DNA of 64,000 nt, taken from NCBI RefSeq assembly GCF_900128995.1, contig NZ_FQUE01000001.1, positions 868,001-932,000 on the forward strand, written 5' to 3'. The stretch is from Loktanella atrilutea. GTDB lineage: Bacteria; Pseudomonadota; Alphaproteobacteria; Rhodobacterales; Rhodobacteraceae. Positions 5,841-50,254 of this stretch are shown here, in pieces. The notes beneath the pieces were generated by a model, which saw only the letters and a list, made by a program, of their open reading frames with translations, had not been told where the DNA came from and did no database searches. Within the stretch, counting starts at the first letter, position 1; the number at the start of each line of letters is the position of its first letter. The position numbers were made by a program, and so were the translations under genes.

Positions 5841-5888
5841 CTTCTTCTGGTCAAAAATACCTCGGGGGTCCGGGGGCTGGCCCCCGGA
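5841..5888 (-). repeat. Intergenic GTATTT element, copy a
   Basis: In minus-strand orientation, 14 nt after the coxL stop: a GC hairpin (5888-5880/5877-5869, 9 bp, 2-nt loop), then CCCCCGAGGTATTT, then AGAAGAAG. It is nearly identical over 30 nt to copy g downstream of eda. Function unknown; the position after a stop codon suggests transcript-end processing or termination, although no long T-tract follows the hairpin. Confidence 0.75.
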
Positions 5889-5902
5889 ACGCCCTTTGTC
5901 GC

Positions 5903-8266
5903 TTATTGCATCGCTGCCCAGACCCGCGCCGGCGTCAGCGGCATGTCGATATGCGCCACCTTCTTGCCCGAACCGGAATTGATCGCATCCAGCACCGCGT
6001 TCACCACCGACGGCGGAGAGCCGATCGCCCCGGCCTCGCCGCAGCCCTTCACCCCCAGCGGGTTGTGGGTGCAGGGGGTCTGGCACGAATGGTCCACCGT
6101 ATAGAACGGCACATCCTCCGCCCGCGGCATGGCGTAATCCATGTAGGAGGCACTCAGCAGCTGACCGTCGGCGTCGTAGACGCAGCCCTCCAGCATCGCC
6201 TGTCCGATGCCCTGCGCAATCCCGCCGTGGACCTGACCGGACACGATCATCGGGTTGATGATGTTGCCGAAGTCGTCCGCCGCACTGAACCGCTCGATCT
6301 TCACATGGCCCGTCTCGGGATCCAGCTCCACCTCGCAGGCATAGGCGCCGGACGGATAAGTGAAATTCGCGGGGTCATAGAAGGCCGTCTCCTCCAGCCC
6401 CGGCTCGATATCCGTCAGCGGGTAGTTGTGCGGCACATAGGCCGCCAGCGTCACGTCGCCCCAGGCCACGGACTTGTCCGTCCCCGCGACCGAGAACCTT
6501 CCGTTCTTCAGCTCGATGTCGCCCTCGCTGGCCTCCATCAGGTGCGCCGCGATCTTCTTGGCCTTGTTGATCACCTTCTCGGCGGCCCGCACCATGGCGG
6601 AGCCGCAGACCGCGAGGCTGCGCGAGCCGTAGGTGCCCATCCCGAAGGGGATCTTCGAGGTGTCGCCGTGCACGATGTCGATCTGGTCCTCGGGGATGCC
6701 GATCATCTCCGAGATCACCTGCGGGAAGGAGGTCTCGTGCCCCTGCCCGTGGCTGTGCGCGCCCACCATGACGCTGATCGACCCGGTCGCGTTCACCCGC
6801 ACGGTCGCCGCATCGTAAAGCCCCGCCCGCGCGCCAAGCTGACCGACGAGGTTCGACGGCGCGATGCCACAGGCCTCGATGTAGCAGTTCACGCCAAGGC
6901 CCCGCAGCTTGCCTTTCGCCTCCGACTCCTTGCGCCGCGCGGCAAAGCCCGCGAGGTCTGCGATCTCCTCGAGCTTGTCCATCGTGGCGACGTAGTCCCC
7001 GGTGTCATACTCGACGGCGACGGGCGTCGCGTAGGGGAATTCGGTGATGAAGTTCTGCCGCCGCAGCTTGATCGGATCGACGCCGAGCTCGCGCGCGGCC
7101 TTGTCGATCACCCGCTCCAGCTGGAACGTCGCCTCCGGCCGGCCGGCGCCGCGGTAGGCGTCGACGGGCACGGTATTTGTAAAGACCGCCTTCACGTTCA
7201 CATAGATATGCGGCGTCTTGTAGTTGCCGGCCATCAGCGTGCCGTGCAGCCAGGTGGGCACCGAGGACGCGAAGGTCGAGAGATACGCGCCCATGTTGGC
7301 GAGGGTCTCGGTGCGGACAGCCACGAAGTTGTTGTCCGCATCCAGCGCCAGCTCGATCTTGGTCACGTGGTCGCGCCCGTGGGCGTCCGACATGAAGGCC
7401 TCCGATCGGGTGGAGGTCCACTTCACCGGCCGGTTCAGCGCCTTGGCCGCAAAGGTGCAGAAGGCTTCCTCCGCGTAGTGAAAGATCTTGGTGCCGAAGC
7501 CGCCGCCCACGTCGGGCGCCACGACCCGCAGCTTGTGCTCGGGAATGCCCAGCACGAAGGCGCCCATCAGCAGGCGGATCACATGCGGGTTCTGGCTGGT
7601 GGTGTGCAGCGTGTGCATGTCGTCAGAGCGGTTGTATTCGCCCACCGCCACCCGCGGCTCCATCGGGTTGGCGACGAGGCGGTTGTTCACTAGTTCCAGC
7701 GTCGTCACATGGGCCGCGCCCTTGATGGCATCGTCGACGGCCTGCTTGTTGTCCTCCACGAAGCCCCAGTCGTAGCACAGGTTGGAGGTCAGGTCGTCGT
7801 GGACCCGTCCGGCACCGTCCTGCAGCGCCGCCTTCATGTCGATGACCGCCGGCAGCACGTCATAGTCCAGCACGATCGCCTCCGCCGCATCGCGGGCCTG
7901 TGCCAGCGTGTCGGCCACGACCGCCGCCACCGGTTCGCCCACGTGGCGGATCTTGCCTTCGGCGAGGATCGGATGCTTGGGCTCCTGCATCGGCTGCCCA
8001 TGCCGGTCCGTGATCAGCCAGCCGCAGGGCAGACCGCCGACCGCGGCGAAGTCCGCCGCCGTAAAGATCCGGTGCACCCCCGGCATCCCCTCCGCCGCGC
8101 TGGTATCCACGCCGTTCAGCGTCGCATGGGCCACGTCGGCGCGCAGGAAATGCACGTGCAGCTGGCCGTGGATGTTGATGTCGTCCGTGTAGTTCCCGGC
8201 TCCGGTCAGGAACCGCACATCCTCGCGCCGCTTGCTGCTGGCGCCGATTCCGCTGTCCTTGGGCAT
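5903..8266 (-). CDS. coxL: Form II CO-dehydrogenase-like large subunit (molybdopterin-cytosine-dinucleotide binding)
   Basis: Predicted 787-residue catalytic subunit of a molybdenum hydroxylase. The Mo-cofactor motif [10 protein letters not shown] is at 251-260, the catalytic glutamate is Glu744 in [11 protein letters not shown], and the active-site loop reads AYRGAGR (370-376). That loop is the form II signature; authentic aerobic CO dehydrogenase (form I) has AYxCSFR with the S-selanyl cysteine bound to copper. The substrate is therefore not known and CO oxidation should not be assumed. Start ATG at 8266 has GGAGGAG upstream. Neighbours are coxS (upstream) and coxM (downstream), same strand. 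Confidence 0.95.
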
Positions 8267-8318
8267 TTTACTCTCCTCCCAGAGTGTGCAGGTCCGACGT
8301 CGCCGCACGGTCCCCTGC

Positions 8319-8373
8319 TTCTTCTCGTTCCAAATACCTCGGGGGGAGGCGAAGCCGGGGGGCAGAGCCCCCC
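8319..8373 (-). repeat. Intergenic GTATTT element, copy b
   Basis: Minus-strand orientation, about 21 nt after the coxS stop: hairpin of seven G/C pairs (8373-8367/8363-8357), a GC linker, then CCCCCCGAGGTATTTGG and, 5 nt later, AGAAGAAG. It has the same parts as copy a, which lies one gene further downstream. Confidence 0.75.
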
Positions 8374-8394
8374 TCCACCCTCACCCCGGCACAC

Positions 8395-8880
8395 TCACTC
8401 CGCCGCCAGCGCCGGCATCTCCTGCCCCGACGCCGCCATGATCGCCTTGACGATGTTGTGGTAGCCCGTGCAGCGACAGATGTTGCCGTCGAGGTGGTGC
8501 CGGATCTCCGCCTCCGAAGGCTTGGGATTGTCCTTCAGCAAGGCGGTCGCCGCCATCACCATCCCCGGGGTGCAGAAGCCGCACTGCAGGCCGTGGTGAT
8601 CCTGGAACGCCTGCTGCACGACGCTCAGCGTGCCGTCCGGTGCGGCGATCCCCTCGATCGTCGTGACCGCGGCGCCTTCCGCCTCAGCCGCGAACATCGT
8701 GCAGGCCTTCACCAGCAGGCCGTCCACATGCACCGTGCAGGCCCCGCACTGCGAGGTGTCGCAGCCGACATGCGTTCCCGTCAGGTGCAGGCCTTCGCGC
8801 AGGAAATCCACCAGCAGCGTTCGCCCCTCGACCTCACCGCTCACCGAACGTCCGTTCACATCCATCGTCACACGCATCAT
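8395..8880 (-). CDS. coxS: Mo-hydroxylase 2Fe-2S (small) subunit, CoxS type
   Basis: Predicted 161-residue iron-sulfur subunit carrying electrons from the Mo centre to FAD. A plant-type ferredoxin domain has Cys40, Cys45, Cys48 and Cys60; the C-terminal four-helix [2Fe-2S] domain has CGFC (100-103) and CRC (135-137) followed by TGYHNI. All eight ligands are present. Two ATGs lie in tandem at 8880 and 8877, with GGAGG 4 nt before the first. About 107 nt separate it from the accessory genes upstream, so it may have its own promoter. Confidence 0.96.
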
Positions 8881-8987
8881 CGTTCCTCCCTCGAACGCAT
8901 CGATCATGGCGGAAGTTAAACACGCGCAACCCGCTCTGGGAAGGACCGTCTTTCGCTGCAGGTGCGAAGGACCCGCGACGCGCCGCG

Positions 8988-9977
8988 TCAATCCGTGGCG
9001 CGGCGGGGGCGCGGGCGCGAGGGGATTTCCTTCAGCAGGCCGCCGACGCCCATGTCGGCGATGGCGGCGGGCGTCACATCCAGACCGCACAGCAGCCGTT
9101 CCAGCACCCAGTCCGCCCCGTTCAGCGCGGGTGACCGGGCGCAGCCCGGCAGCCCCACGACCGGTCGCCCGGCGTGGTGGCCAAGGAACAGCAGGTTGCC
9201 CGGATCGACGGGCATGCCGAAGTGATCGACAGTGCCGCCCGCCAGCCGCACCCCCTCTGGCGCGGTATCGTTCAGGTCCGACGTGGCGGACCCGGTCAGG
9301 ATGCAGACCAGCGGCGCATCGGTCGCGATCAGCGCCTGCGCAATGGCCTGTGCGTCATGGTCCACGAGGCTGCGACCGGCAAATCCGACGCCCAGCCGGT
9401 CAAGGCGTGTGCGCAGGGACCGCACCCCCTTGTCGCCAAGGTCGCGCCCGGCGCGGGTCTCGATCAGGGCGACGCGGTCGATGGACGGGCGGTGCAGGGC
9501 GATGGCGGCGCGCCCCGCGTCGCAGGCCGCCCGCAGCGGCTCCTGCCCCACGGCGTAAGAGATGATCTTGACCGTGGCGACCAGTCCGCCCGCCTCCATC
9601 CGGTGAAGGTCCGGCACGGTCGCCACGGTGATCATCGGGTCGATCCGGTTGACCGCCTGCAGCGCCGCGACCTGCAGGGCGGCCAGCCCCGGCGCGTCCG
9701 CGATCACGTTGACGCGCCCCGTGGCCGCGACGCCAAGCCGCAGGCCCGGCGCCCCCGCCACCAGCGTTTCAGCCAGATCAGCGGCGGCGCGGTCCTCGTC
9801 CACGTCGCCGGGATCAAGGCGGGCGACGGTGACGCGATCCAGTCCCGCCGTCGCCAGACGATCGAGGTCGGCGGCGGTCAGCACATGGCCTTTCGACAGG
9901 GTGCCGTCGGGCAGGGTCTCGCGGTGGGCGAGAATCGCGCCCTGCGCGTCAGCGACCGGGACGGGCCCGAACCTCAT
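8988..9977 (-). CDS. Molybdopterin-binding protein of the Mo-hydroxylase cluster
   Basis: Predicted 329-residue protein with a MoaB/MogA-like molybdopterin-binding region in its C-terminal half ([16 protein letters not shown], and [18 protein letters not shown] near the end). The N-terminal third starts [17 protein letters not shown], a pattern seen in proteins next to Mo-hydroxylase maturation genes. I infer a role in delivering or modifying the cofactor. The nucleotidyltransferase (MobA/MocA) domain with which such modules are often fused is not here, so cytidylylation must be done by another gene. Its ATG overlaps the stop of the XdhC gene by 4 nt, so the two are translationally coupled. 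Confidence 0.8.
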
Positions 9978-10939
9978 CGGTTGCGGCGCAGGGTGGCGAT
10001 GACCTGCGCCATGATGCTGACGGCGATTTCTGCCGGGGCCCGCCCACCGAGGTCGAGTCCGATGGGGGCATGGATCCGGGCGATGTCGTCCTCCGTGAAA
10101 CCGGCCTCGGTCAGGCGCGTGACGCGCTTGGCATGGGTGCGCGTCGATCCGAGGCAGCCGAGGTAGAAGGCCCGCGATGTCAGCGTCTGCGTGATTGCGG
10201 GATCGTCGAGCTTGGGGTCGTGGGTCAGGGTCACGACCGCCGTCCGGCTGTCGGGGGCAAGCGCCGTCATCGCCTCGTCGGGCCAGTCCTCGACGATCGT
10301 CTCGCCCGGAAAACGATCAGCAGAGCCGAAAGCCCCGCGCGGATCGATCAGCACGGGATCGAAGCCGCAGGCCCGCGCCATCGGCAGCAACGCCTGCGCG
10401 ATATGCACGGCACCGACAACGATCATCCGCAGGGGCGGGTTGTGGACGGCGACGAAGGTCCGGCCGTCCTCCTCCACCCCCGACCGGTCGAGGCGGAACC
10501 GGTCGGGGTAGTCGGCCGGGTCCGCCACGCGGCGGGCGTCCGAGTCGAGGTCGATGACATAGGCGACGGGCTGCTTTTCGGCGATGGCAGCCACGAGCTG
10601 ATCCAGAAGCGCCACGGGCATCGCACCACCCACCGGTTCGACCAGCACCCGGATGCGCCCACCGCAGGCCAGACCCACGGCAAAGGCCTCGTCGTCGCTG
10701 ACGCCGTAATCCAGCAGGCGCGCCTCTCCGGTCGGGATCGCGTCCAGCGCCTCCATGATGACGGCGCCCTCGACGCAGCCGCCAGAAACGGAGCCTTCCA
10801 TCCGGCCCTCGCCGTCGATGATCAAAAGCGATCCGACGCCGCGCGGGGCAGAACCCCACGTCTCGATCACGGTGGCGACGGCAACGGGTTGACCGGCGCG
10901 GTGCCAGTCGCGAGCGGTCTGCAGCAGATGGTCGGTCAT
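9974..10939 (-). CDS. XdhC/CoxF-family Mo-hydroxylase maturation protein
   Basis: Predicted 321-residue maturation factor. Proteins of this family bind molybdenum cofactor and help its sulfuration and insertion into the large subunit. Visible are the N-terminal XdhC motif with GSAPRGVGS (29-37) and SGGCVEG (52-58), whose cysteine is conserved, and a C-terminal Rossmann-like domain starting at RMIVVGAVHIAQAL (about 170-183). It lies between coxE (9-nt gap) and the molybdopterin-binding gene (4-nt overlap), within the accessory half of the cluster. Confidence 0.9.
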   Translation of the reverse strand: MTDHLLQTARDWHRAGQPVAVATVIETWGSAPRGVGSLLIIDGEGRMEGSVSGGCVEGAVIMEALDAIPTGEARLLDYGVSDDEAFAVGLACGGRIRVLVEPVGGAMPVALLDQLVAAIAEKQPVAYVIDLDSDARRVADPADYPDRFRLDRSGVEEDGRTFVAVHNPPLRMIVVGAVHIAQALLPMARACGFDPVLIDPRGAFGSADRFPGETIVEDWPDEAMTALAPDSRTAVVTLTHDPKLDDPAITQTLTSRAFYLGCLGSTRTHAKRVTRLTEAGFTEDDIARIHAPIGLDLGGRAPAEIAVSIMAQVIATLRRNR

Positions 10940-10948
10940 CGGAGGGCC

Positions 10949-12265
<1,317 letters not shown>

Positions 12266-12278
12266 GGCCGGCGTCGCA

Positions 12279-12340
12279 GGGGGGCTGTCTGCCCCCCGGG
12301 CTGCGCCCTCCCCCCGAGGATATTTGGAAGACAGAGAGGA
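12279..12340 (+). repeat. Intergenic GTATTT element, copy c (inverted relative to the genes)
   Basis: Plus-strand orientation: hairpin of seven pairs (12279-12285/12291-12297), a GC linker, then CCCCCCGAGGATATTTGG and a weaker purine tail ACAGAGAGGA. The core has GGATATTT where others have GGTATTT. It fills the gap between coxD and coxE but points against their transcription, unlike most other copies. Confidence 0.65.
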
Positions 12341-12350
12341 CGGGCGCCGG

Positions 12351-13253
12351 TCACGCGGGGATCGCGGCGCGCGCGTCGTCGAGGATCTTCCTGGCCTTCG
12401 CGCCTTCGATCTTCTGTATGTCGTCCTGATACTTCAGGATCGCGCCCAGCGTGTCGGCGATGACGGCGGGTGACAGGTCGATGACGTCGAGGGCGAGCAG
12501 GCACTTCGCCCAGTCGATGGTCTCGGCGACGCCGGGCTTCTTGAACAGATCCTCGGACCGCAGGCGCTGGACGAAGGCCACGACCTCGCGGCTGAGGGTC
12601 TCGGCGGCCTCTGGCGCGCGGGCGTGCAGGATGTCGAGTTCGCGGTCGAAATCGGGATAGTCGACCCAGTGATAGAGGCAGCGGCGTTTCAGGGCGTCGT
12701 GAACCTCGCGCGTGCGGTTACTGGTCAGGATCACGATGGGCGGCGTGGGGGCCTTGATGGTGCCGAGTTCGGGGATCGTGACCTGGAAGTCCGACAGCGC
12801 CTCGAGCAGGAAGGCCTCGAAGGGGGCATCGGTGCGGTCCAGTTCGTCGATCAGCAGGACCGGCGCGCCGCCGGGCTGCGGGCGCATCGCCTGCAGCAGC
12901 GGGCGTTCGATCAGGTAGTCTTCGGTAAAGAGCTCCGCCTTCAGGGCGGTGCGGTCGGTGCCGCCCGCCGCCTCTGCCGTGCGGATCGCGATCATCTGTT
13001 CGGCGAAGTTCCACTCATAGACGGCAGAGGCGGCATCGAGCCCCTCGTAGCACTGCAGGCGGATCAGGCGGCGGCCGAGGGCGGCGGAGAGCGCCTTGGC
13101 AATCTCTGTCTTGCCGGTGCCGGCCTCGCCTTCGAGGAACAGGGGGCGGCCCAGTTTCAGGGCGAGGAAGACCACCGTGGCCAGCGGGCGCGGGCAGATG
13201 TAGCGTTCGGCGGCCAGCGCCGTCTGCACCGCGTCGATGCTGTCGAATGTCAT
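12351..13253 (-). CDS. coxD: MoxR-family AAA+ ATPase (CoxD)
   Basis: Predicted 300-residue AAA+ chaperone-like ATPase. Walker A is GEAGTGKTE (42-50), Walker B VLLIDELDR (132-140), and sensor-1 ILTSNRTRE with the arginine-finger region LKRRCLYHW follows. CoxD proteins are membrane-associated MoxR ATPases needed for maturation of the Mo active site, acting with the VWA partner encoded next. ATG at 13253 was chosen because family similarity starts at MTFDSIDAVQ; the open frame upstream is antisense to the divergent gene. It is the first gene of the minus-strand Mo-hydroxylase unit, with a 222-nt divergent region upstream. Confidence 0.95.
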   Translation of the reverse strand: MTFDSIDAVQTALAAERYICPRPLATVVFLALKLGRPLFLEGEAGTGKTEIAKALSAALGRRLIRLQCYEGLDAASAVYEWNFAEQMIAIRTAEAAGGTDRTALKAELFTEDYLIERPLLQAMRPQPGGAPVLLIDELDRTDAPFEAFLLEALSDFQVTIPELGTIKAPTPPIVILTSNRTREVHDALKRRCLYHWVDYPDFDRELDILHARAPEAAETLSREVVAFVQRLRSEDLFKKPGVAETIDWAKCLLALDVIDLSPAVIADTLGAILKYQDDIQKIEGAKARKILDDARAAIPA

Positions 13254-13475
13254 GGAACCACTCTCCCCCCGGGTCGCCTGTGCGTTCAACCTGCACCCCG
13301 GGGCGCCCGCGTCAAGGCGGACATTGTCGGCACGCGCCGAAGGTCGTAGCCTCCGGCCGGACCGGGCGGGCGGCGGGGTCGCAAAAGGAACCAGACCCTT
13401 GCCCAATTCTGCCGCATTGGCCCCGCACCTTGCCCGCAGACGTGGGTCGGGCCGCGACAGGACAGGAGAGCCGAA

Positions 13476-14417
13476 ATGACGGACCATGCGTTGCACTTCA
13501 CGACCGACCTGAAGGGGCTGGAGCCGGACGACTGGCTGGCGGCGCTGGAAGAGGTCGTGGAGGAGAACGGGTCCTTTACGCCGCTGGGACCCGACCATGT
13601 GGCGACCTTCCTCGACGCCGGGCCGCAGCTGCTGGTCACCTTCGAGAACGCGGCGGATATCCGGGCCCTGCCCGACGCGGCCCCCCGCGGCTTTGCCTTC
13701 GCCCGGCGCGAGGGCTGGTCGCATCTGGCGATCATCGGCAGAGAGGAGAGCTGGTTCCGCGATCCCGCGATCTACCGGCACGTCGACCGGCTGATCGACG
13801 ACGGTTTCTTCGAGGATTTCGAAAGCGTGCTGTTCTTCGGCAGCGGCGCGGGCGGATATGCGGCGGCGGCCTACAGTGTCGCGGCCCCAGGCGCGCGGGT
13901 GCTGGCGCTGCGGCCGCAGGCGACGCTGGACCCGACCGTCACCGGCTGGGATACGCGCTACATGGCGCAGCGGCGGCTGAACTTCACCGGGCGCTACGCC
14001 TATGCGCCCGACATGATCGACGCGGCCCGTCAGGTCTGGATCGCCTACGCGCCGCAGCAGCGGTTCGACGCGATGCACGCCAGCCTCTTTACCCGGCCCA
14101 ACGTGCAGATGCTGCGAATCAGCGGGATCGTCGGCCGGCTGGACGCAGCTTTCGACAGCCTCGGCGCCCTCGACACGCTGCTGCGCGACGCGATGGCGGG
14201 CGACCTGACGGTGCAGCGATTCATCCGTGCCCTCGCGGCGCGCAAGACCTACAGCCCCTACCTGCGGAACCTCGTGCGGCGGGCCCGCGACCGCGGCCAC
14301 GACGATCTGGCAGCACTGGCCTGCCGCGCGGTGCTGGCGCGCGGCCCTGACAGCCATTTCGCGCGGCAACTGGAACAGATGGGCCAACCGGTGCCGCAGC
14401 AGGACGCCGCGGAATAG
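13476..14417 (+). CDS. Conserved alphaproteobacterial protein of unknown function (often labelled phosphoadenosine phosphosulfate reductase)
   Basis: Predicted 313-residue soluble protein of a family I know from Rhodobacterales, where databases often carry the name PAPS reductase. I see no PP-loop (SGGxDS) and no CGxH active-site cysteine, so that name is not supported. The segment FFGSGAGGYAAAAYS (120-134) resembles the nucleophile elbow of an alpha/beta hydrolase, but the residue at the nucleophile position is Gly124, not Ser. ACAGGAGA precedes the ATG by 6 nt. It is divergent from coxD; pyrC follows 73 nt downstream on the same strand. Function unknown. Confidence 0.8.
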   Translation: MTDHALHFTTDLKGLEPDDWLAALEEVVEENGSFTPLGPDHVATFLDAGPQLLVTFENAADIRALPDAAPRGFAFARREGWSHLAIIGREESWFRDPAIYRHVDRLIDDGFFEDFESVLFFGSGAGGYAAAAYSVAAPGARVLALRPQATLDPTVTGWDTRYMAQRRLNFTGRYAYAPDMIDAARQVWIAYAPQQRFDAMHASLFTRPNVQMLRISGIVGRLDAAFDSLGALDTLLRDAMAGDLTVQRFIRALAARKTYSPYLRNLVRRARDRGHDDLAALACRAVLARGPDSHFARQLEQMGQPVPQQDAAE

Positions 14418-14490
14418 GACGGTCCCGATCTGACGTGCGCCCGGGGCGGCGTGACTGGTCAGCGCCGCCGTTCGCGTGTAATGGACGGTC

Positions 14491-15540
14491 ATGCCCGACC
14501 GACAGATCACAGAACTGACCCTGCGCCGCCCCGACGACTGGCACCTGCACCTGCGCGATGGCGCGATGCTGGAGGCCGTGCTGCCGGAAACCGCCCGCCA
14601 TTTCGCGCGGGCCATCGTGATGCCGAACCTCGTGCCGCCGGTGGTGACCGGTGCGCAGGCCATGGCCTATCGCGACCGGATCATGGCGGCCCTGCCCGCC
14701 GGCGCCGATTTCACGCCACTGATGACGCTCTACCTGACCGAGGATACCGACCCCGATGACGTGACGGCGGCCCATGCGGCAGGGATCATCACCGCGGTGA
14801 AACTCTATCCCGCGGGCGCCACGACCAATTCCGCCAGCGGCGTGCGCGATTTCGACAAGGTGCGCCCGGTGCTCGACCGCATGGCAGAGATCGGCCTGCC
14901 GCTGTGTGTCCACGGCGAGGTGACCGATCCCAGCATCGACATCTTCGACCGCGAGGCGGTGTTCATCGACAAGATCCTGCGGCCGATGCGCAAGAAGAAC
15001 CCCGACCTGCGCATCGTGATGGAGCATGTGACGACGCAGAACGCCGTGGACTACGTCCGCGACGCGGCCCGCAACCTTGCCGCGACGATCACGACCCATC
15101 ACCTGATCATCAACCGCAACCACATCCTCGCCGGCGGTATCCGCCCGCACTTCTATTGCCTCCCGGTGGCCAAGCGCGAGACGCACCGCGTGGCACTGGT
15201 GCAGGCGGCGGTGTCGGGCGACAAGCGGTTCTTCCTCGGCACCGATTCCGCCCCCCATACGGAGGCCGGCAAGCTGCAGGCCTGCGGCTGCGCCGGCATC
15301 TTCACCGCGACCAATACGATGTCCTGCCTTGCAGAGGTCTTCGAGGCCGCGGGCGCCCTGCGCCAGCTGGAGGCCTTCACCTCTCTGAACGGTCCGGCCT
15401 TCTACCGGATGGAACCCAATGCCGACACGATCACCCTGACGCGGGGCGATCCCGTCGCATATCCTGCGCGGATCGACACCGGCGAGGGGCCGGTGACGGT
15501 CTTCGACCCCGGTTTCCCCCTGCACTGGCGCGTCACCTGA
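14491..15540 (+). CDS. pyrC: Dihydroorotase, class II
   Basis: Predicted 349-residue zinc enzyme that cyclises N-carbamoyl-aspartate to dihydroorotate in pyrimidine synthesis. The metal-binding HLH is at 18-20 ([10 protein letters not shown]); [13 protein letters not shown] supplies the carboxylated lysine; [13 protein letters not shown] and GTDSAPH give the remaining histidines and the catalytic aspartate. Length fits the homodimeric class II enzyme of Proteobacteria. pyrE follows after 40 nt on the same strand, so the two are probably co-transcribed. Confidence 0.98.
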
Positions 15541-15580
15541 CGCGGACCGTCCCCGTGCCCCGAACGAAAGGTTCCACCCG

Positions 15581-16258
15581 ATGATCCCCACCGGTTTTCC
15601 CGCCAAGGACGAGATCGCCCGCCTGACCGCCGGCATGCTGCTGGAAATCGGCGCGGTGGATTTCAACACAACGACCCCCTTTACCCATGCCAGCGGCAAG
15701 CAGGCGCCGACCTACGTCGATTGCCGCAAGCTGATCTCCTACCCCCGCATCCGCGCGACGCTGATGGATTTCCTGACCGTCACGATCATGCGAGAGGCCG
15801 GTTTCGAGGCCTTCGACAACATCGCCGGCGGCGAGACGGCGGGCATCCCCTTTGCCGCGATGGTGGCCGAACGCATGGCGCTGCCGATGACCTACGTGCG
15901 CAAGAAGCCCAAGGGCTACGGCCGCAATGCCCGCATCGAGGGCGTGATGACCGAAGGCCAGCGCGTCCTGCTGGTGGAGGATCTGACCACCGACGGCGGG
16001 TCCAAGCTGTCCTTCGTGGACGCGATCCGCGAGACCGGCGCCACCTGCGGCGCGACGGCGGTCATCTTCTTCTACGGCATCTTCGAAGGGGTGGAGGCGC
16101 GACTTGCCGACCACGGCGTGCAGCTGCTGCACCTGTGCACCTGGTGGGATGTGCTGGCGGTCGCCCGCGCCCGCGGCGCATTCGACGACAGGACGCTCGA
16201 CGCGGTAGAGGCCTACCTGCGCAACCCGGCCGGATGGACCCCGGGCGTCATGGTCTGA
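15581..16258 (+). CDS. pyrE: Orotate phosphoribosyltransferase
   Basis: Predicted 225-residue enzyme joining orotate and PRPP to give OMP. The PRPP-binding motif [13 protein letters not shown] and the loop with [17 protein letters not shown] are clear. The C-terminus carries a short extension usual in Alphaproteobacteria. It follows pyrC; the partner pyrF (OMP decarboxylase) is not in this window. Confidence 0.97.
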
Positions 16259-16356
16259 CGCTGCGCCGGCGGATGTCTGCCGCCGATCAGACCACCATAT
16301 CTTGAGGCTTCTGGTAGCGATGTGCGCCATCTTGTGGTAAGCTCGCCGCAGGCGAC

Positions 16357-16365
16357 CTATCCACA
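16357..16365 (+). promoter_or_regulatory. DnaA-box-like nonamer upstream of dnaB
   Basis: CTATCCACA differs in one base from the DnaA box TTATCCACA. It is a single site about 90 nt before the dnaB start, in the 198-nt pyrE-dnaB gap. A single near-match can occur by chance. Confidence 0.25.
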
Positions 16366-16456
16366 GAAATATACAATTTGGGTCCGCGCCGCCGCTGGTC
16401 TATGACCGGCGCAAGCCACGCCGCACGTGGCAACCGACCGAGGGGACAGGCATCCG

Positions 16457-17962
16457 ATGAACGAGATCAGCATTTTCAATGCGACCGGCACCGCCGAGGC
16501 GAGCGTCGACACGATGCCGCATTCGATCGAGGCGGAACAGCAGTTGCTGGGCGCGATCCTGACCAACAACGACATCTTCGACCGGATCGCCTCTGTCGTG
16601 GGCCCGCAGCATTTCTACGATCCCGTCCACGCCCGCATCTTCGATTGCTGCGCCGCGCGCCTGTCCAAGAACGCGCTGGCCAGCCCGGTAACGCTGAAAT
16701 CCTACATGGAGGATGACGAGGGCCTCGCCGAACTCGGCGGCGGCGCCTACCTCGTGCGGCTGGCGGCCTCGGCCACCTCCGCCTTTGCCGCGCGCGACTA
16801 CGCGCAGATGATCTACGACCTCGCGATCCGCCGTCAGCTGATCCAGGTCGGGCAGACGATCTCTTCCAAGGCGTCCAAGGTCGACGTGGCCTCCGAACCC
16901 AAGGACCAGATCGTCGAGGCGGAACAGGCACTTTATGCGCTGGCCGAAAGCGGCACCAGCGAGAGCGGCTTTCAGTCCTTCCTGCGGGCGGTGACCGACG
17001 CGGTGAACGTCGCCAACGCCGCCTATCAGCGCGATGGGGGGCTGGCCGGCGTCTCGACCGGTCTCGTCGATCTCGACAAGAAACTGGGCGGGTTGCACAA
17101 GTCCGACCTTCTGATCCTTGCGGGCCGCCCGTCCATGGGCAAGACGTCGCTTGCGACCAACATCGCCTACAACATCGCCAAGGCCTACAAGAAGGGCACC
17201 CTGCACGACGGCACCGAAGGCGCTGTGAACGGCGGCGTCGTGGGCTTCTATTCGCTGGAAATGTCCGCCGAACAGCTGGCTGCCCGGATCCTGTCGGAAG
17301 CGGCAGAGGTGCCAAGCGAACAGATTCGCCGCGGCGACATGACAGAGGTCGAATTCCGCCGCTTCGTCCATGCCGCCAAGCAGCTCGAATCCTGTCCGCT
17401 CTTCATCGACGACACGCCCGCCCTGCCGATCAGCCAGCTGGCCGCCCGCGCGCGGCGTCTGAAGCGGACGCATGGTCTGGACGTTCTGGTCGTGGACTAC
17501 CTGCAACTGGTGCGCGGCACCGGGCGGTCGGAAAACCGCGTGAACGAGATCTCCGAGATCACCATGGGCCTGAAGGCCATCGCCAAGGAACTGATGATCC
17601 CGGTCATCGCCCTGTCGCAGCTGTCGCGTCAGGTGGAAAACCGCGAAGACAAGCGCCCGCAACTGTCGGACCTGCGGGAATCCGGCTCGATCGAGCAGGA
17701 CGCCGACGTGGTGATGTTCGTGTTCCGCGAGGAATACTACAAGGAACGCGAAAAGCCGGGCGATCACGAGATGGACAAGATCGCCATCTGGCAGGAAGAG
17801 ATGGAGCGCCTGCGCGGCAAGGCCGAGGTCGTCATCGGCAAGCAGCGCCACGGCCCCATCGGCACGGTCGAACTCAGCTTCGAGGGCCGTTTCACCCGCT
17901 TCGGCAATCTTGTGAAGCCCTGGCAGCAGGACGGCGGCGCCGGCGGCGACGTCGGTTTCTAG
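16457..17962 (+). CDS. dnaB: Replicative DNA helicase
   Basis: Predicted 501-residue hexameric 5'-3' helicase of the replication fork. The N-terminal DnaB domain begins at MPHSIEAEQQLLGAIL; the RecA-like domain holds Walker A GRPSMGKTS, the segment VGFYSLEMS, and VLVVDYLQLVRG (Walker B, H3). No intein is inserted. The ATG at 16457 (MNEISIFN) fits the family; a GTG 30 nt upstream is in frame but less likely. It stands alone between pyrE and a repeat element. Confidence 0.98.
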   Translation: MNEISIFNATGTAEASVDTMPHSIEAEQQLLGAILTNNDIFDRIASVVGPQHFYDPVHARIFDCCAARLSKNALASPVTLKSYMEDDEGLAELGGGAYLVRLAASATSAFAARDYAQMIYDLAIRRQLIQVGQTISSKASKVDVASEPKDQIVEAEQALYALAESGTSESGFQSFLRAVTDAVNVANAAYQRDGGLAGVSTGLVDLDKKLGGLHKSDLLILAGRPSMGKTSLATNIAYNIAKAYKKGTLHDGTEGAVNGGVVGFYSLEMSAEQLAARILSEAAEVPSEQIRRGDMTEVEFRRFVHAAKQLESCPLFIDDTPALPISQLAARARRLKRTHGLDVLVVDYLQLVRGTGRSENRVNEISEITMGLKAIAKELMIPVIALSQLSRQVENREDKRPQLSDLRESGSIEQDADVVMFVFREEYYKEREKPGDHEMDKIAIWQEEMERLRGKAEVVIGKQRHGPIGTVELSFEGRFTRFGNLVKPWQQDGGAGGDVGF

Positions 17963-18023
17963 ACCCGCGTCCCTCTTCGGTCCGGCGCCCATGGCTCTGG
18001 ACCTCATCGGGCGGGGCCCGCCC

Positions 18024-18077
18024 CTTCTTCTCGTCGGAAATACCTTGCGGAGGCGTGGAGGTGCAAAACCTCCACGC
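18024..18077 (-). repeat. Intergenic GTATTT element, copy d
   Basis: Minus-strand orientation: a 10-bp hairpin (18077-18068/18062-18053, GCGTGGAGGT type with a 5-nt loop), then CCGCAAGGTATTTCC and AGAAGAAG. It is in the 200-nt gap after dnaB, reading against the flanking plus-strand genes. Confidence 0.65.
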
Positions 18078-18162
18078 GGGACGGCACGGCCCGCCCACGG
18101 CGCTGTCATTTGCAACCTGCCGCCATACCCCTATCTTGGTGAGAGCCAGTGAAAGGGTCCCC

Positions 18163-19455
18163 ATGACCGATGAGCCCCGCCCGACCTCTGCCAGCGTATC
18201 CCGGACAGAGGCGCGCAACATCCGCAACGCCCGCGACCTCGAATCCCACGTCGTCTGGCTGGAAAGCATCACCGGCACCGCTCTTGGCGTGCTCGCGGTG
18301 GCATCGGGCATCTATACCTACCTCGGCGTCTCCTCGCTGCTTGACGACAACGGCGCCCTGTCGGTCTTTGCCGCGCTGGCCTATTCGGTCGCCGTCTCCG
18401 TGGGGATCTACGTCTTCTGGTCCTACATGATGCGCCTGCTGCCAGCGGTGCATACGGCCACGGCGCGCATCGGCCTCGGTCTGTCCATGGTGCTGGGCAG
18501 CCTTGCCATCATCGCCATGTCGTCCTGGCTGAACGCCGCGGCCCTCGCGGGTGCCGCCGCCGTCGAACAGCATCTGGCCGAAACGGTGCAGCAATATCAG
18601 ACGGCCCTCGAACGCGCGGACGAGATCACCCAGTCGGCGCAAAGCCTGTCGCGCGACGTCGCCCGCGTCCGCCAGTCCTTCGACGATCTGAGCGAGCAGG
18701 AGGCAACCGGCCAGCTGTCGGGCTTCGCCGGGCAAGGCGCCGTCTTCCGCCTGCTGCGCCAGAAATCCGATGAACTCGCCGCGCTCGAGGCGCAGATCAC
18801 CGCCCAGCAGCCGCTGGTCGAGCAGGCCTTCACCGAAGGGAACGCGATCCTGTCGCGGATGCGCGCCCTGACCGTTGACCAGGGCTCGATCGAGGCCCGC
18901 ACCGTGCCCTTCAGCGAGGAGGCGGTCCGGCTGGCCAACGTCATCACGCAACTGCGCCAGCTGTCCGTGGCACCGCTGGTGAACCGCGCCGCCACCGATC
19001 TGGCCGATGCGGTGGTCCTGCCCAGCCTCGATGGGTCCGACAGCGACACCCGCGCGGGTCAGCAGGCGACAATCGATTCGGTCCTCGGCGTGCTGCAGCA
19101 GCGGGCGACCACCCTGCAGGCGGCGGCGCAGGACGTGCTGGCGATGACGCCCCCCGCCGATATCAGCTACACCCCGATCAGCGCCGCCGACGCGGTGATC
19201 CTCTACGCCGGAAACTTCATTCCCTCCTGGGCCGGCGCCATTGCCATCGACCTGCTGCCCGCCGTGCTGGTGCTCATCCTCGCCGTCACGCAGGCCGCGA
19301 TCCGGGCGGGCCGCGACGGCACTGCGGCCGAGGATTCAATGACCCTGTCGGAACTGCGCGCCGCCGTGAACGCGATGCGCGAGATGGAAACCTCCCTCGA
19401 CCGGACGGAGGCGGTGGTGACCCGCCTCGATCGCCAGAAGACCCCCGCCGAATGA
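18163..19455 (+). CDS. Membrane protein with long periplasmic or cytoplasmic coiled coil, unknown function
   Basis: Predicted 430-residue protein that I do not recognise as a named family. Hydrophobic segments lie at about 36-60, 65-92 and 103-125, followed by a helical Glu/Gln/Ala-rich region (about 131-340, probable coiled coil), a fourth membrane segment at about 383-405 (LLPAVLVLILAVTQAAI), and a charged C-terminal helix. The ATG at 18163 was chosen because residues from there are hydrophilic then membrane-spanning; the upstream in-frame codons cross the repeat element. Its stop overlaps the start of the next gene (ATGA), so the products are probably partners. Topology is inferred by eye only. 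Confidence 0.8.
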   Translation: MTDEPRPTSASVSRTEARNIRNARDLESHVVWLESITGTALGVLAVASGIYTYLGVSSLLDDNGALSVFAALAYSVAVSVGIYVFWSYMMRLLPAVHTATARIGLGLSMVLGSLAIIAMSSWLNAAALAGAAAVEQHLAETVQQYQTALERADEITQSAQSLSRDVARVRQSFDDLSEQEATGQLSGFAGQGAVFRLLRQKSDELAALEAQITAQQPLVEQAFTEGNAILSRMRALTVDQGSIEARTVPFSEEAVRLANVITQLRQLSVAPLVNRAATDLADAVVLPSLDGSDSDTRAGQQATIDSVLGVLQQRATTLQAAAQDVLAMTPPADISYTPISAADAVILYAGNFIPSWAGAIAIDLLPAVLVLILAVTQAAIRAGRDGTAAEDSMTLSELRAAVNAMREMETSLDRTEAVVTRLDRQKTPAE

Positions 19456-20228
19456 CGACGGCCCCTGCCCGCTGGTCCGCAGGCCGTCTGCTGCGCTGGA
19501 TCTTCGGCCTGCAGTTGGTCTTCGGCGCGGTGTTGCTGGGATCGGACATCGCCCGCATCCTGCCGCAGGTCGCGATGCCCTCCAGCGCGCCGGCGATCAC
19601 GCAGCCCCTCGGTCCCGGCGACCAGACCCGCCGCTACGATCCCGCGCGGATCGATCAGCGCCCCGCCCGCCCCGGCTCGCGCCCGATCCCTGCGAGCACT
19701 GACATGCCCTCGCGCCTCGATTTCAGCGATACGGTCTGGCAGGGCGAACCGACGATCACCCTCACCGGCCGCATCGCGCCGGGCGACGCGGACCGCCTGA
19801 CCGATTTCCTGACGACCGTGGACCCGGCACCCACGCAGGCCTTCCTCAATTCCCCTGGCGGATCGGTGCAGGACGCGCTCGCGATGGGCCGCGTCCTGCG
19901 CGATCTCGGCCTCGCGACCCGGATGACCGCCAGCGACATCTGCCTCTCCGCCTGCCCCTACCTGCTGGCCGCCGGCACGACCCGCAGCGTCGAGGACGGC
20001 GCCCTCGTGGGCATCCACCAGCACTACTTCGGCGAAAACACTGCCCTGCCCGCCTTCATGGCCGTCTCCGACATCCAGCGCGGCCAGGGCGAGGTGATGG
20101 AATATCTTGCGGACATGGGCATCGATCCGCTGATCATGCGCCCGGCCCTCGCCACCCCGCCGGACGAGATCTACCTGCTGACCCCCGACGAGATGCAGCG
20201 CTTCCGCCTGACGACCGACGCCGACTGA
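19452..20228 (+). CDS. Exported ClpP/crotonase-fold protein (COG3904-like), possible serine peptidase
   Basis: Predicted 258-residue protein with an uncleaved signal anchor or signal peptide (about 14-38) and a ClpP-like domain from about 90. NSPGGSVQDA (133-142) gives the oxyanion glycines, Ser166 in DICLSACPYLLAAG is the likely nucleophile and His189 in VGIHQHY the likely base. The protein would face the periplasm. It overlaps the coiled-coil membrane protein gene by 4 nt, suggesting a membrane-bound complex in which that protein scaffolds or presents substrate. Substrate unknown. A repeat element and a hairpin follow the stop codon. Confidence 0.82.
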   Translation: MTTAPARWSAGRLLRWIFGLQLVFGAVLLGSDIARILPQVAMPSSAPAITQPLGPGDQTRRYDPARIDQRPARPGSRPIPASTDMPSRLDFSDTVWQGEPTITLTGRIAPGDADRLTDFLTTVDPAPTQAFLNSPGGSVQDALAMGRVLRDLGLATRMTASDICLSACPYLLAAGTTRSVEDGALVGIHQHYFGENTALPAFMAVSDIQRGQGEVMEYLADMGIDPLIMRPALATPPDEIYLLTPDEMQRFRLTTDAD

Positions 20229-20229
20229 A

Positions 20230-20264
20230 GTCCTCGCTTTTTTCCAAATACTCCCGCCGGAGGC
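20230..20264 (-). repeat. Intergenic GTATTT element, copy e (CGGCGGGAG variant)
   Basis: Minus-strand orientation: GCCTCCGGCGGGAGTATTTGG followed by a run of A and GCGAGGAC. The CTCC/GGAG arms form a small hairpin immediately before the GTATTT core. It lies in the gap between two convergent genes and is almost identical to copy f after edd. Confidence 0.7.
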
Positions 20265-47647: not shown

Positions 47648-49453
47648 ATGGCCCTGCATCCCAAGATCGCCGAAGTCACCGACCGCATCCGTGCCCGGTC
47701 AGAGGCACCGCGTCGCCGGTATCTGGACACGATGGCCCGCGCCGCCGCCGCGGGCCCGCGCCGGGCGCATCTGACCTGCGGCAACCAGGCCCATGCCTAT
47801 GCGGCGATGGGCGACCAGAAGGACGCCCTCGTGGCCGAGGCCGCGCCCAACATCGGCATCATCACCGCCTACAACGACATGCTGAGCGCGCACCAGCCGT
47901 TCGAGACCTATCCTGCCCTGATCAAGCGCGCTGCCATCGCCGCGGGCGCCACCGCGCAGGTCGCGGGCGGCGTGCCCGCCATGTGCGACGGCGTGACGCA
48001 GGGGCAGACGGGGATGGAACTGTCGCTCTTCTCGCGCGACGTCATCGCCCTGTCGGCGGCGGTGGGCCTGTCGCACAATACCTTCGACGCGGCGATCTAC
48101 CTCGGCGTCTGCGACAAGATCGTGCCCGGCCTCGTCATGGCCGCCGCGACCTTCGGCTACATTCCCTCCATTTTCCTGCCCGCCGGCCCCATGACCTCGG
48201 GCCTGCCCAACGACGAGAAGTCGAAGGTCCGCCAGCAGTTCGCCACCGGCGAGGTCGGGCGCGACGCACTGATGGCATCGGAGATGGCGTCCTACCATGG
48301 GCCGGGCACCTGCACCTTCTACGGCACCGCCAACAGCAACCAGATGCTGATGGAGTTCATGGGCCTGCACCTGCCGGGCGCGTCCTTCGTGAACCCGAAC
48401 ACGCCGCTACGCGATGCGTTGACCGTGGCGGGCACGGAACGGGCGGCGCAGATCACGGCGCTGGGGAACCAGTTCACGCCGGTCAGCGACATTCTCGACG
48501 AACGGGCCTTCGTGAACGGCCTAGTGGGGTTGATGGCGACGGGGGGGTCGACGAACCTCGTGATCCACCTGCCCGCCATGGCGCGGGCGGCGGGCATCAT
48601 CCTCGACCTTCAGGATTTCAGCGACATCTCGGACGTGACGCCGCTGATGGCCAAGGTCTATCCCAACGGCCTTGCGGACGTGAACCATTTCCACGCGGCC
48701 GGCGGCCTCGGCTACATGATCGGGGAGTTGCTGAACGCAGGCCTGCTGCACGACGACGTCAAGACCGTCGCCGGCGACGGGCTGGACCTCTACACCCAGG
48801 AACCCAAGTTGTCCGATGGCCGCGTGACCTATGCCAAGGGCGCAGGCGAGAGTCTGAACACCAAGATTCTGCGCCCCGCCTCCGAACCCTTCCAGAAACA
48901 CGGCGGGCTGCAGCAGCTTAGCGGCAACCTCGGCCGCGGCGTGATGAAGACCTCCGCCGTGGCGGAGGAGCGTCACATCGTCGAGGCGCCCTGTCGCATC
49001 TTTCACGATCAGGACAGTGTCAAGGCGGCCTTCAAGGCCGGCGAGTTCACCGGCGACACGATTATCGTCGTACGGTTCCAGGGACCGAAATCGAACGGAA
49101 TGCCGGAACTGCACGGGCTGACGCCAACGCTGGCCGTGCTGCAGGACCGCGGGCTCAAGGTGGCGCTGGTGACCGACGGGCGTATGTCGGGCGCCTCCGG
49201 CAAGGTGCCGTCGGCCATCCACGTCTGCCCCGAAGCCGCCGATGGCGGCCCCATCGCGCGGATCAACGACGGCGACGTGATCCGTCTGGATGCGGTCAAC
49301 GGCACCATCGACGTGCTGGGAGTCGACCTCGACAACCGCACCGTGGCGACCGCCGACCTGACCGGCAACGGCACCGGCGTCGGCCGCGAACTCTTCGAGG
49401 TCTTCCGCCGCAACGTGGGTCTGGTGACCGACGGCGCCGGTGTCGCGGTCTAG
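47648..49453 (+). CDS. edd: 6-phosphogluconate dehydratase
   Basis: Predicted 601-residue [4Fe-4S] dehydratase converting 6-phosphogluconate to KDPG, the first specific step of the Entner-Doudoroff pathway. ILVD/EDD family motifs: [33 protein letters not shown] (cluster Cys; two pieces around MCDG), SVGLSH-like [12 protein letters not shown], and [18 protein letters not shown] at 47648 fits the family start. A repeat copy separates it from eda. Confidence 0.97.
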
Positions 49454-49459
49454 GGGTTC

Positions 49460-49494
49460 GTCCTCGCTTTTTCTGAAATACTCCCGCCGGAGGC
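49460..49494 (-). repeat. Intergenic GTATTT element, copy f (CGGCGGGAG variant)
   Basis: Minus-strand orientation GCCTCCGGCGGGAGTATTT, then CAGAAAAAGCGAGGACG. Located 6 nt after the edd stop, between edd and eda; it matches copy e closely over about 30 nt. Confidence 0.7.
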
Positions 49495-49534
49495 ATCCGC
49501 CCCCTGCTTCACGCACACCCATAGGCAATCCCTC

Positions 49535-50176
49535 ATGACACCTGAACAAGCTTCCGAACTGAACCACGACCTCTGCCTGCTGGCACCGGTGATCCCGGTG
49601 CTGGTGCTCGACGATGCGGCACTTGCCGCCGACCTCGCCCGCGCGCTGGTCGCCGGCGGCCTGCCCGCGCTGGAGGTCACGCTGCGCACGCCAGCCGCCC
49701 TCGACGCGATCCGCGAGATGGCCGATATCCCCGGCGGCGTGGTGGGCGCAGGCACGTTGCTGACGCCGAAGGATGTCGAGAACGCCAAGAAGGCGGGCGC
49801 GAAGTTCGGCGTCTCGCCCGGGGCGACGGACCTGATCCTGGACGCCTGCGAGGACAACGACCTGCCGCTGCTGCCCGGTACCGCCACCGCGTCGGAGGCG
49901 ATGCGCCTGCTGGAGCGCGGCTACACGGTACAGAAGTTCTTTCCGGCCGAGGCCAACGGCGGCGTGCCTGCGCTGAAGGCGATCGGCGCGCCGATCCCGC
50001 AGGTCCGGTTCTGCCCCACGGGGGGGGTCAGCCTGAAAAACGCGCCGGACTACCTCGCGCTGTCCAACACGCTGTGCGTCGGTGGCAGCTGGGTCGCGCC
50101 GAAGGACATGATGCTGGCCGGCGACTGGGCCGGGATCGAAGCCCTCGCACGCGAGGCGGCCGGCCTGCCGCGTTGA
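49535..50176 (+). CDS. eda: KDPG/KHG aldolase
   Basis: Predicted 213-residue class I aldolase cleaving KDPG to pyruvate and glyceraldehyde-3-phosphate. LEVTLRTP holds the catalytic Glu, VQKFFPAE the Schiff-base Lys, and CPTGGVS the phosphate site. With edd it completes the Entner-Doudoroff branch; zwf and pgl are elsewhere. Two hairpins and a repeat copy follow the stop. Confidence 0.97.
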   Translation: MTPEQASELNHDLCLLAPVIPVLVLDDAALAADLARALVAGGLPALEVTLRTPAALDAIREMADIPGGVVGAGTLLTPKDVENAKKAGAKFGVSPGATDLILDACEDNDLPLLPGTATASEAMRLLERGYTVQKFFPAEANGGVPALKAIGAPIPQVRFCPTGGVSLKNAPDYLALSNTLCVGGSWVAPKDMMLAGDWAGIEALAREAAGLPR

Positions 50177-50181
50177 GCGAT

Positions 50182-50254
50182 ATCGGATTGCGGCGCAATC
50201 CGATCCGCGGGGGCCAGCCCCCGCACCCCCGAGGTATTTGAGACGAGAAGAAGG
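50182..50254 (+). repeat. Double hairpin plus GTATTT element, copy g
   Basis: Starting 5 nt after the eda stop: a 10-bp stem with 3-nt loop (50182-50191/50195-50204, ATCGGATTGC type), an 8-bp GC stem (50207-50214/50217-50224), then ACCCCCGAGGTATTTG and AGAAGAAG. The second hairpin and tail are nearly identical to copy a. Likely the end of the edd-eda transcript. Confidence 0.75.

What the first reader, a model, noticed from the sequence alone, without database searches (positions are those of the whole stretch)
5841..50254. Seven copies of an intergenic element with hairpin, GTATTT core and purine-rich tail
Copies lie at 5841-5888, 8319-8373, 12279-12340, 18024-18077, 20230-20264, 49460-49494 and 50182-50254. 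Each has a GC hairpin, then a (G)AGGTATTT or GGAGTATTT core (one copy GGATATTT), then a purine tail (AGAAGAAG or GCGAGGAC type). Two sub-types exist: CCCCCGAGGTATTT (a, b, c, g) and CGGCGGGAGTATTT (e, f), with d between them. Four lie in the sense orientation just after a stop codon (a, b, g; e relative to olsB); c, d and f point against the upstream gene. None is inside a gene. The conserved single-stranded part after the hairpin, not just the hairpin, argues for a bound factor or a processing signal, or for a small dispersed repeat.
Basis: partly seen in the sequence, partly recalled or inferred. Interest (0 to 1): 0.72.

Follow-up and report, generated by a model that had tools for sequence, protein, structure and literature searches.

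The report
Strand-oriented repeats behind bacterial stop codons
The seven copies belong to a large family of short hairpin-plus-tail DNA repeats that sit just behind stop codons, carry a genome-specific "dialect" in their tail, and point along a DNA strand rather than along the genes, so they look more like a DNA-level signal than like an RNA-processing site.

Summary
The window's genome (G000, 4.2 Mb) holds 94 exact cores against 2 reversed-pattern controls. Strong enrichment was seen only in its own family: 39 of 149 sampled family genomes have at least 40 hits, none of 285 sampled genomes of other families has 24. Anatomy: exchangeable head, GRRGTATTT core, 3-nt spacer, 11-12-nt tail. Among G000 copies with a TATTT core and a recognised tail, GGTATTT goes with tail A 47/47 and AGTATTT with tail B 46/46. 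Tails are genome-specific and rewritten in place: ten orthologous B pairs keep 93% of core, 44% of tail. Copies sit behind stop codons (G006: 0 of 107 divergent, 25 of 295 codirectional, 19 of 68 convergent gaps), in either direction relative to codirectional genes (76 sense, 66 antisense). Direction follows strand composition: tail-side 4-fold-site GC skew is positive at 72 of 79 G000 copies. This speaks against a sense-strand RNA signal and for a DNA site read by an unknown co-evolving factor, or a REP-like repeat without a RAYT. A weak test (n=7) does not show that the element causes the skew.

The parts
5841..5888 (-). copy a: head hairpin CCGGGGGCCAGCCCCCGG, core CCCCCGAGGTATTT, spacer TTG, tail ACCAGAAGAAG (tail A); sense, behind the stop of gene 5903-8266(-)
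   Evidence: element at the orthologous place in G006
8319..8373 (-). copy b: hairpins, CCCCCCGAGGTATTT, spacer GGA, tail ACGAGAAGAAG (tail A); sense, behind gene 8395-8907(-)
   Evidence: ortholog present
12279..12340 (+). copy c: variant core GAGGATATTT with tail AAGACAGAGAGGAC; antisense between 10949-12265(-) and 12351-13253(-)
   Evidence: not found in G006
18024..18077 (-). copy d: hairpin CGTGGAGGTTTTGCACCTCCACG, variant core CAAGGTATTT, tail ACGAGAAGAAG (tail A); antisense between 16457-17962(+) and 18163-19455(+)
   Evidence: ortholog present in G006 with the same variant core and the G006 tail ACCAGAAGAAG
20230..20264 (-). copy e: GCCTCCGGCGGGAGTATTT, tail AAAAAAGCGAGGAC (tail B), preceded on its strand by hairpin TTGCCGTGCAGGGCACGGCAA; convergent gap, sense to 20287-21006(-)
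   Evidence: G006 has two tandem copies, one with each of its B tails
49460..49494 (-). copy f: GCCTCCGGCGGGAGTATTT, tail AAAAAGCGAGGAC (tail B), no strong upstream hairpin; antisense between 47648-49453(+) and 49535-50176(+)
   Evidence: ortholog present, tail rewritten
50182..50254 (+). copy g: two hairpins, CCCCCGAGGTATTT, spacer GAG, tail ACGAGAAGAAG (tail A); convergent gap, sense to 49535-50176(+)
   Evidence: ortholog present

Best explanation
These are copies of one dispersed DNA element of the window's bacterial family (f1; Rhodobacteraceae/Roseobacteraceae, inferred from the named hits): exchangeable, mostly hairpin-forming head, GRRGTATTT core, 3-nt spacer, 11-12-nt tail. I think it acts as DNA, read in one direction by a sequence-specific factor whose specificity drifts between lineages, so that the tails of a genome change together while core and place stay. 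Two core-tail words (GGTATTT with tail A, AGTATTT with tail B) would be two specificities of that system. The element is tolerated or needed just behind stop codons and is oriented with the G-rich strand on its tail side. Shown: anatomy, code, dialects, placement, orientation statistics, in-place tail rewriting, covarying pairs beside the head stem. Inferred: the trans-acting factor, DNA-level reading, and any role (chromosome topology, recombination or DNA exchange).
For: Copy number and control. Family limits. Core-tail code: 93 of 93 in G000; in G006 73 of 73 copies with GG or AG cores, three more have other cores; looser in G018, where 4 of 21 GGTATTT copies have tail B and 1 of 7 AGTATTT copies tail A. 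Dialects: in G000 ACGAGAAGA follows 44 of 58 GG cores and AAAAGCGAG 33 of 37 AG cores; in G006 ACCAGAAGA 46 of 50, GCAAGATGA 19 of 29 and AAAAGCGAG 5 of 29; G018 GCCAGATGAA and AAAAGGGCGAGA; other genera. In-place rewriting: 24 of 24 aligned orthologous pairs keep their class (14 A, 10 B); class B core 93%, tail 44%, following 22 nt 32% identical. Orientation: 76 to 66 relative to codirectional genes, but tail-side 4-fold GC skew positive at 72/79 (G000), 45/49 (G006), 64/89 (named) copies against 49/78, 31/48, 46/95 on the head side; 591 element-free stops lie between -0.05 and 0. Pairs flanking the GGGG/CCCC stem covary beyond shuffles in the 13 G000 and 11 G006 copies of that geometry.
Against: No binding protein was found or looked for. 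Convergent-gap enrichment, absence from divergent gaps and covarying hairpin pairs are also what an mRNA 3'-end element would show. Core-tail coupling could be descent of two repeat subfamilies. At 7 placed sites where G006 has no recognisable element the tail-side skew is the same as in G000 (0.135 against 0.145), and skew is no higher at copies shared with G006 than at the rest (0.21 against 0.187, p 0.50), so the element is not shown to cause the skew. In 18 further G000 copies the skew is less one-sided (0.235 tail side, 0.184 head side). In named genera the effect is weaker (antisense copies: whole-sequence skew positive at 12 of 26; 4-fold skew at 18 of 26). The element also sits on plasmids. 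Gene calls are mine, not an annotation pipeline's.
Confidence: 0.5

Rival explanations
1. A REP/BIME-like mobile palindromic repeat without necessary host function: copies spread by an unidentified transposition or gene-conversion mechanism and survive where they do least harm, behind stop codons.
For: Dispersed, mostly extragenic, rare in divergent gaps, either orientation; inverted core within 112 nt tail-to-tail at 19 and head-to-head at 9 of 147 class B copies of named and viral contigs; near-identical stretches of 50-59 nt between unlinked copies such as L007/L030 and L099/L101; head modules differing between orthologous copies; genome-specific tails.
Against: No Y1/RAYT transposase match in G000 or G006; 15 of 149 family genomes have one and element counts do not follow it (p 0.28). 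Six of the window's seven copies are at orthologous places in a genome mostly 75-84% identical over aligned loci, and orientation is kept at all 25 placed shared sites, while sequence just beyond the tail has diverged.
Confidence: 0.27
2. A transcript-end element: the hairpin protects mRNA 3' ends and RNase E cuts in the single-stranded GUAUUU behind it, the purine tail being part of the recognition.
For: Hairpin followed by an AU-rich core; AU is enriched around R. sphaeroides RNase E sites (PMC6238624, passages seen); position behind stop codons; covarying hairpin pairs.
Against: Orientation relative to codirectional genes is 76 to 66, so nearly half of these copies would present the wrong strand; two copies lie inside apparent operons (nirJ to nitrite reductase, rfbB to rfbD); motif searches at PNPase-dependent 3' ends of R. 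sphaeroides found none (PMC7866481, passages seen).
Confidence: 0.15
3. A DNA-uptake or recombination signal comparable to DUS/USS: constant core plus lineage dialect, homogenised by biased exchange between relatives.
For: Dialects around a constant core, two B dialects co-existing in G006, inverted pairs in other genera, direction-dependent composition on one side. The DUS paper describes dialects, a constant core, and inverted pairs at terminators (PMC3630211, passages seen).
Against: About a hundred copies, not hundreds to thousands; few inside genes (15 of 280 over three sets); no uptake preference for these bacteria came up in the listings; also on plasmids.
Confidence: 0.15
4. An intrinsic transcription terminator family.
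For: GC-rich hairpin near a TATTT in many copies; one terminator-like site (18009-18023, plus strand) abuts copy d, on the opposite strand.
Against: No U tract; the terminator scan of 5000-24000 found 10 sites against 7.8 expected and none on the strand of copies a to e; copies in apparent operons; near-random orientation.
Confidence: 0.07

Closest known systems
REP / BIME (GTAG-tagged repetitive extragenic palindromes with RAYT transposases)
   Same: Short, palindromic, about 100 copies, extragenic, either orientation, inverted pairs in some genera, genome-specific variants
   Different: No GTAG tag, no RAYT match in this genome, conserved part is a non-palindromic core plus tail beside the hairpin, positions largely conserved between two species
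CGTC-tagged palindromic repeats (PMC3733652, passages seen)
   Same: Palindromic dispersed repeats said to lack a dedicated transposase; tail A of G000 happens to contain GACG, the complement of CGTC
   Different: GACG is not at the hairpin end and reads GACC in G006; that paper's main text has no occurrence of Rhodobacter, Paracoccus, Roseo- or Ruegeria
DNA uptake sequences of Neisseriaceae (DUS dialects)
   Same: Constant core with lineage dialects, inverted pairs at gene ends
   Different: Far fewer copies, rarely inside genes, longer and hairpin-headed, uptake untested
RNase E cleavage sites of Rhodobacter sphaeroides
   Same: AU-rich single-stranded site beside structure
   Different: Element orientation ignores gene direction; much longer conserved sequence

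Membership tests
REP/BIME with RAYT | dispersed extragenic palindromic unit in tens to hundreds of copies | tested here: met
   94 exact cores in G000; in G006 0/107 divergent, 25/295 codirectional, 19/68 convergent gaps occupied
REP/BIME with RAYT | GTAG (or CGTC) tag at one end of the hairpin | tested here: not met
   position profiles show GRRGTATTT plus tail; GACG (complement CGTC) occurs at tail A of G000, away from the hairpin, GACC in G006
REP/BIME with RAYT | Y1/RAYT transposase in the genome or correlated with copy number | tested here: not met
   no PF01797 match in G000 or G006, no correlation over 149 genomes
REP/BIME with RAYT | inverted doublets | tested here: inconclusive
   tail-to-tail 19 and head-to-head 9 of 147 in named and viral contigs; none within about 75 nt among the 84 G000 and 72 G006 copies
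DUS/USS uptake sequence | constant core with genome-wide dialect | tested here: met
DUS/USS uptake sequence | hundreds to thousands of copies, many inside genes | tested here: not met
   0-216 exact pattern hits per family genome; 6 of 84 copies inside called genes in G000
DUS/USS uptake sequence | raises DNA uptake, bound by a receptor | not testable with these tools
   needs a transformation or gene-transfer-agent assay
RNase E processing site / mRNA 3'-end signal | sense orientation relative to the transcript | tested here: not met
   76 sense, 66 antisense in codirectional gaps
RNase E processing site / mRNA 3'-end signal | transcript ends at the core | not testable with these tools
   no RNA-seq data on hand
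Intrinsic terminator | GC hairpin followed by a U tract | tested here: not met
   TATTT only; terminator scan of 5000-24000, copies a to e
Known Rfam RNA | match above gathering score | tested here: not met
   only two tRNAs in the window

The most novel reading that the evidence does not exclude
A self-recognition DNA signal with a two-word, lineage-specific code in Rhodobacteraceae: an oriented entry or exchange point (uptake, gene-transfer-agent exchange, or recombination) whose tail dialect is kept uniform across a genome by a co-evolving receptor and whose one-sided composition skew is a scar of strand-specific exchange starting at the element.
Probability: 0.15. Interest if true: 0.88.

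Novelty: new variant of a known kind. Interest (0 to 1): 0.62.

Why it matters
Many genomes of a large family of marine and soil bacteria appear to carry a compact, oriented, dialect-bearing DNA element behind some of their genes; the listings of my literature searches (open-access library only, up to 20 papers listed per search) showed no description of it. If a protein reads it, the dialects give an immediate handle for finding that protein; if nothing reads it, its in-place concerted rewriting and its alignment with local strand skew need another explanation. Either way it should be annotated, since it can be mistaken for terminators or small RNAs.

Tried and rejected
RAYT-driven repeat: not supported. 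Plain transcript-end signal: weakened by orientation. Replichore polarity: on contig C26 the large-scale skew is noisy, so I report local skew only, not replication direction. C-to-T deamination as cause of the skew: not supported, since T does not rise where C falls. Element as cause of the skew: compared at 7 sites without a recognisable copy in G006 and not supported (site-by-site counts at c and at one G006-only site also show no bias). In one search I also treated copy d as absent from G006; the re-check shows that it is present there, behind an extra gene, so that part is void; one search had counted d correctly as shared. Trans-acting RNA matching tail B: of 50 AAAAGCGAGGA sites, one in L054 lacks a core; not pursued. 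Plasmid against chromosome density: RP-C matched only on contig C16, inconclusive. Searching papers by sequence strings (237 papers hold a string, 20 listed, none on this group by title) led nowhere.

Limits of the counts: numbers of copies differ between calls with the pattern used (83, 84, 93). One search drops copies with fewer than 25 usable sites per bin (84 to 79, 72 to 49, 124 to 89 on the tail side). could place 32 of the 84 copies plus c and d, and part of the G006 sequence held had been fetched because it bears elements, so 25 of 32 shared is biased upward; absence there is by pattern, so degenerate copies may be missed; the window itself gives 6 of 7. One search aligned 24 of those 25; d, with its variant core, was not matched. 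The covariation test used only the 13 and 11 class A copies with one head geometry. The output was cut by the tool. The gap background comes from loci selected for elements; one search uses 878 kb of G006, mostly 20-kb tiles of large contigs that I chose, where elements are denser than in the genome as a whole. G018 was seen through 30 loci. Control counts of the core pattern outside the family reach 44, so weak enrichment there cannot be judged.
Full report
Observation. The seven copies are present as described. Their shared part is a C-rich or CCTCCGG head, GRRGTATTT (c and d vary), three free bases, then a purine tail. Searching the whole genome in which the window lies (G000, 4.2 Mb, 46 contigs), SSGRGGTATTT gives 58 hits against 2 for the pattern read backwards and SGGGAGTATTT 36 against 0. 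I hold all of them (window): 83 of the 94 bear a purine tail; of the 11 others nine lie inside called genes. The tail AAAAGCGAGGA alone has 50 hits against 0; 30 held copies follow a standard core and three do not fit it; of 18 sites then fetched, one already held, all 18 are elements with other heads or degenerate cores. One site in L054 has the tail without a core. Rfam shows no such RNA in the window.

Anatomy. Position profiles show sharp edges: conservation starts at CCCCC or GCCTCC, ends after the tail, and is weak in the spacer. Heads come as a GGGG-loop-CCCC hairpin (loops CCAG, CTCTG, CGCTG), as CCTCCGGCGGG, or as a T-rich stretch, and may be preceded by further hairpins. In copies of one fixed head geometry the two base pairs flanking the GGGG/CCCC stem can pair in 13 and 12 of 13 in G000 and in 11 and 10 of 11 in G006, above shuffles (G-T allowed), so the hairpin is kept as a structure. 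Core and tail are locked: among copies with a recognised tail and a TATTT core, in G000 GGTATTT goes with ACGAGAAGAAG-type tails 47 of 47 and AGTATTT with AAAAAGCGAGG-type tails 46 of 46; in G006 43 of 43 GGTATTT and 30 of 30 AGTATTT obey, and three tails follow other cores; in G018 the coupling is looser, 4 of 21 GGTATTT having tail B and 1 of 7 AGTATTT tail A. Heads are partly exchangeable between tails.

Distribution. In 149 genomes of the same family CSGRRGTATTT has 4786 hits against 1169 in the control; 39 genomes have at least 40 hits, 72 have at least 12 hits and three times the control, and a few have none or only two. In 285 sampled genomes of other families of the class none exceeds 23 hits, with controls up to 44 (read from the table). 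Twenty IMG/VR contigs carry 18 nt of it. In PLSDB 33 plasmid records gave 46 places, by the organism names shown also of this group, and no listed gene under the best match of any of the records with gene tables. Sister genome G006 is inferred to be Loktanella salsilacus: its contig C43 has the same length as NZ_FOTF01000010.1 and the same element and flank, so the window is probably from Loktanella.

Dialects and in-place rewriting. Tails differ between genera and mostly agree within a genome: for example GACGAAGAGAAG in three loci of two Salipiger bermudensis strains, GGAACATTGAAA in two Thalassovita mediterranea loci, AGAAAGAGCAAT in two loci of one Pseudorhodobacter MAG; two Pseudooceanicola marinus loci show no clear common tail. 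G000 and G006 are mostly 75-84% identical over well-aligned loci. At 24 aligned orthologous pairs the class is kept in all (14 A, 10 B). Class B cores are 93% identical while tails are 44% and the bases beyond 32%; 9 of the 10 B tails switch from AAAAAGCGAGG to the CAAGATGA type and one keeps it. In 12 of 14 class A pairs ACGAG in G000 reads ACCAG in G006. In the window 6 of 7 copies have an ortholog; c has none, d has one with the same variant core and the tail of G006, and G006 has copies that G000 lacks.

Placement and orientation. With a home-made gene caller, the contexts in G000, G006 and named loci add up to 76 sense and 66 antisense in codirectional gaps (24/22, 15/18, 37/26), 107 convergent and 9 divergent; 15 further copies fall inside called genes and 7 could not be placed. 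In 878 kb of G006 the element occupies 25 of 295 codirectional, 19 of 68 convergent and 0 of 107 divergent gaps of at least 30 nt (Fisher tests). In antisense position the core ends a median of 23.5-25.5 nt from the neighbour's stop codon, so the tail nearly abuts it. Four plasmid records with gene tables agree: between nirJ and nitrite reductase in R. pomeroyi, near the stop of rfbA in D. shibae, between rfbB and rfbD in Ruegeria TM1040, and in a convergent gap in Leisingera; two further records list too few genes to tell.

Strand polarity. Orientation does follow something: measured on the element's strand, 4-fold-site GC skew in the first 500 nt on the tail side averages 0.226 in G000 (72 of 79 copies positive), 0.218 in G006 (45 of 49) and 0.130 in named genera (64 of 89); on the head side it is 0.090, 0.049 and -0.006. 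In 50 copies of the longer G006 stretches it falls from 0.25 to 0.12 within 1.5 kb and stays near 0.1 to 3 kb, while the head side is 0.06 or less. It is seen in sense, antisense and convergent contexts, and element-free stops (591) lie between -0.05 and 0. In 18 further G000 copies the tail side is 0.235 but the head side also 0.184. The shift is C to G without a rise in T. Autocorrelation of local skew (0.50 at 500 nt) would explain part of the decay but, as I read it, not its one-sidedness. Where G006 has no recognisable element (7 placed sites) the skew is nevertheless the same, and site-by-site comparison at c and at one G006-only site shows no bias. So the element marks, and may choose, one-sided skew; that it makes it is not shown.

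Interpretation. A sense-strand RNA signal predicts sense bias; there is little or none. A RAYT repeat predicts the transposase; none was found. A coupled core-tail code, genome-wide dialects rewritten in place, and strand orientation are what one expects of DNA sites read by co-evolving factors, as with DUS dialects (PMC3630211, passages), but copy number and the rarity of intragenic sites differ from DUS. I therefore put a DNA-level, factor-read, BIME-like element first at 0.5, with the mobile-repeat, transcript-end, uptake-signal and terminator readings behind it; the uptake reading overlaps the first.

Papers. PMC6238624, PMC7866481, PMC8625941, PMC3630211, PMC3733652 and PMC2817692 were seen as passages; other papers only as search listings. 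Ideas recalled and not used as evidence: poor repair of C-C mismatches by MutS, C-to-G changes by error-prone polymerases, the exact RNase E consensus.

Noticed in passing
L007, L009, L018, L030, L111 and other G000 loci: AT-stem palindromes of the type CCGATTTTTCTAGAAAAATCGG stand directly upstream of several class A copies and look like a repeat module of their own.
   Followed up: partly
L168 / L387:14064-14138: At the ortholog of copy e, G006 carries two tandem class B copies, one with each B-type tail.
   Followed up: partly
L387:11310-11790: At the ortholog of copy d, G006 has an extra open reading frame of about 0.4 kb between the neighbouring gene and the element, so the element there sits behind another stop codon.
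   Followed up: no
L307-L326: Twenty IMG/VR contigs carry the class B unit; several come as near-identical pairs from different samples. Whether they are phage or host DNA was not checked.
   Followed up: no
L179, L181, L183 (G006) and L341 (G018): A fourth head type, around GAACCAGTGGCGCACCAACCGGC, replaces the GGGG/CCCC hairpin in some copies.
   Followed up: no
window 12279-12340: Copy c has a third core and tail (GAGGATATTT, AAGACAGAGAGGAC); short matches to this stretch occur at several places in G006, so a third word of the code may exist.
   Followed up: no
L107, L337, L338: CGGAGGTATTT hits in a conserved stretch that I take, from recall, to be the antisense strand of 23S rRNA: a false-positive source for core-only searches.
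   Followed up: partly
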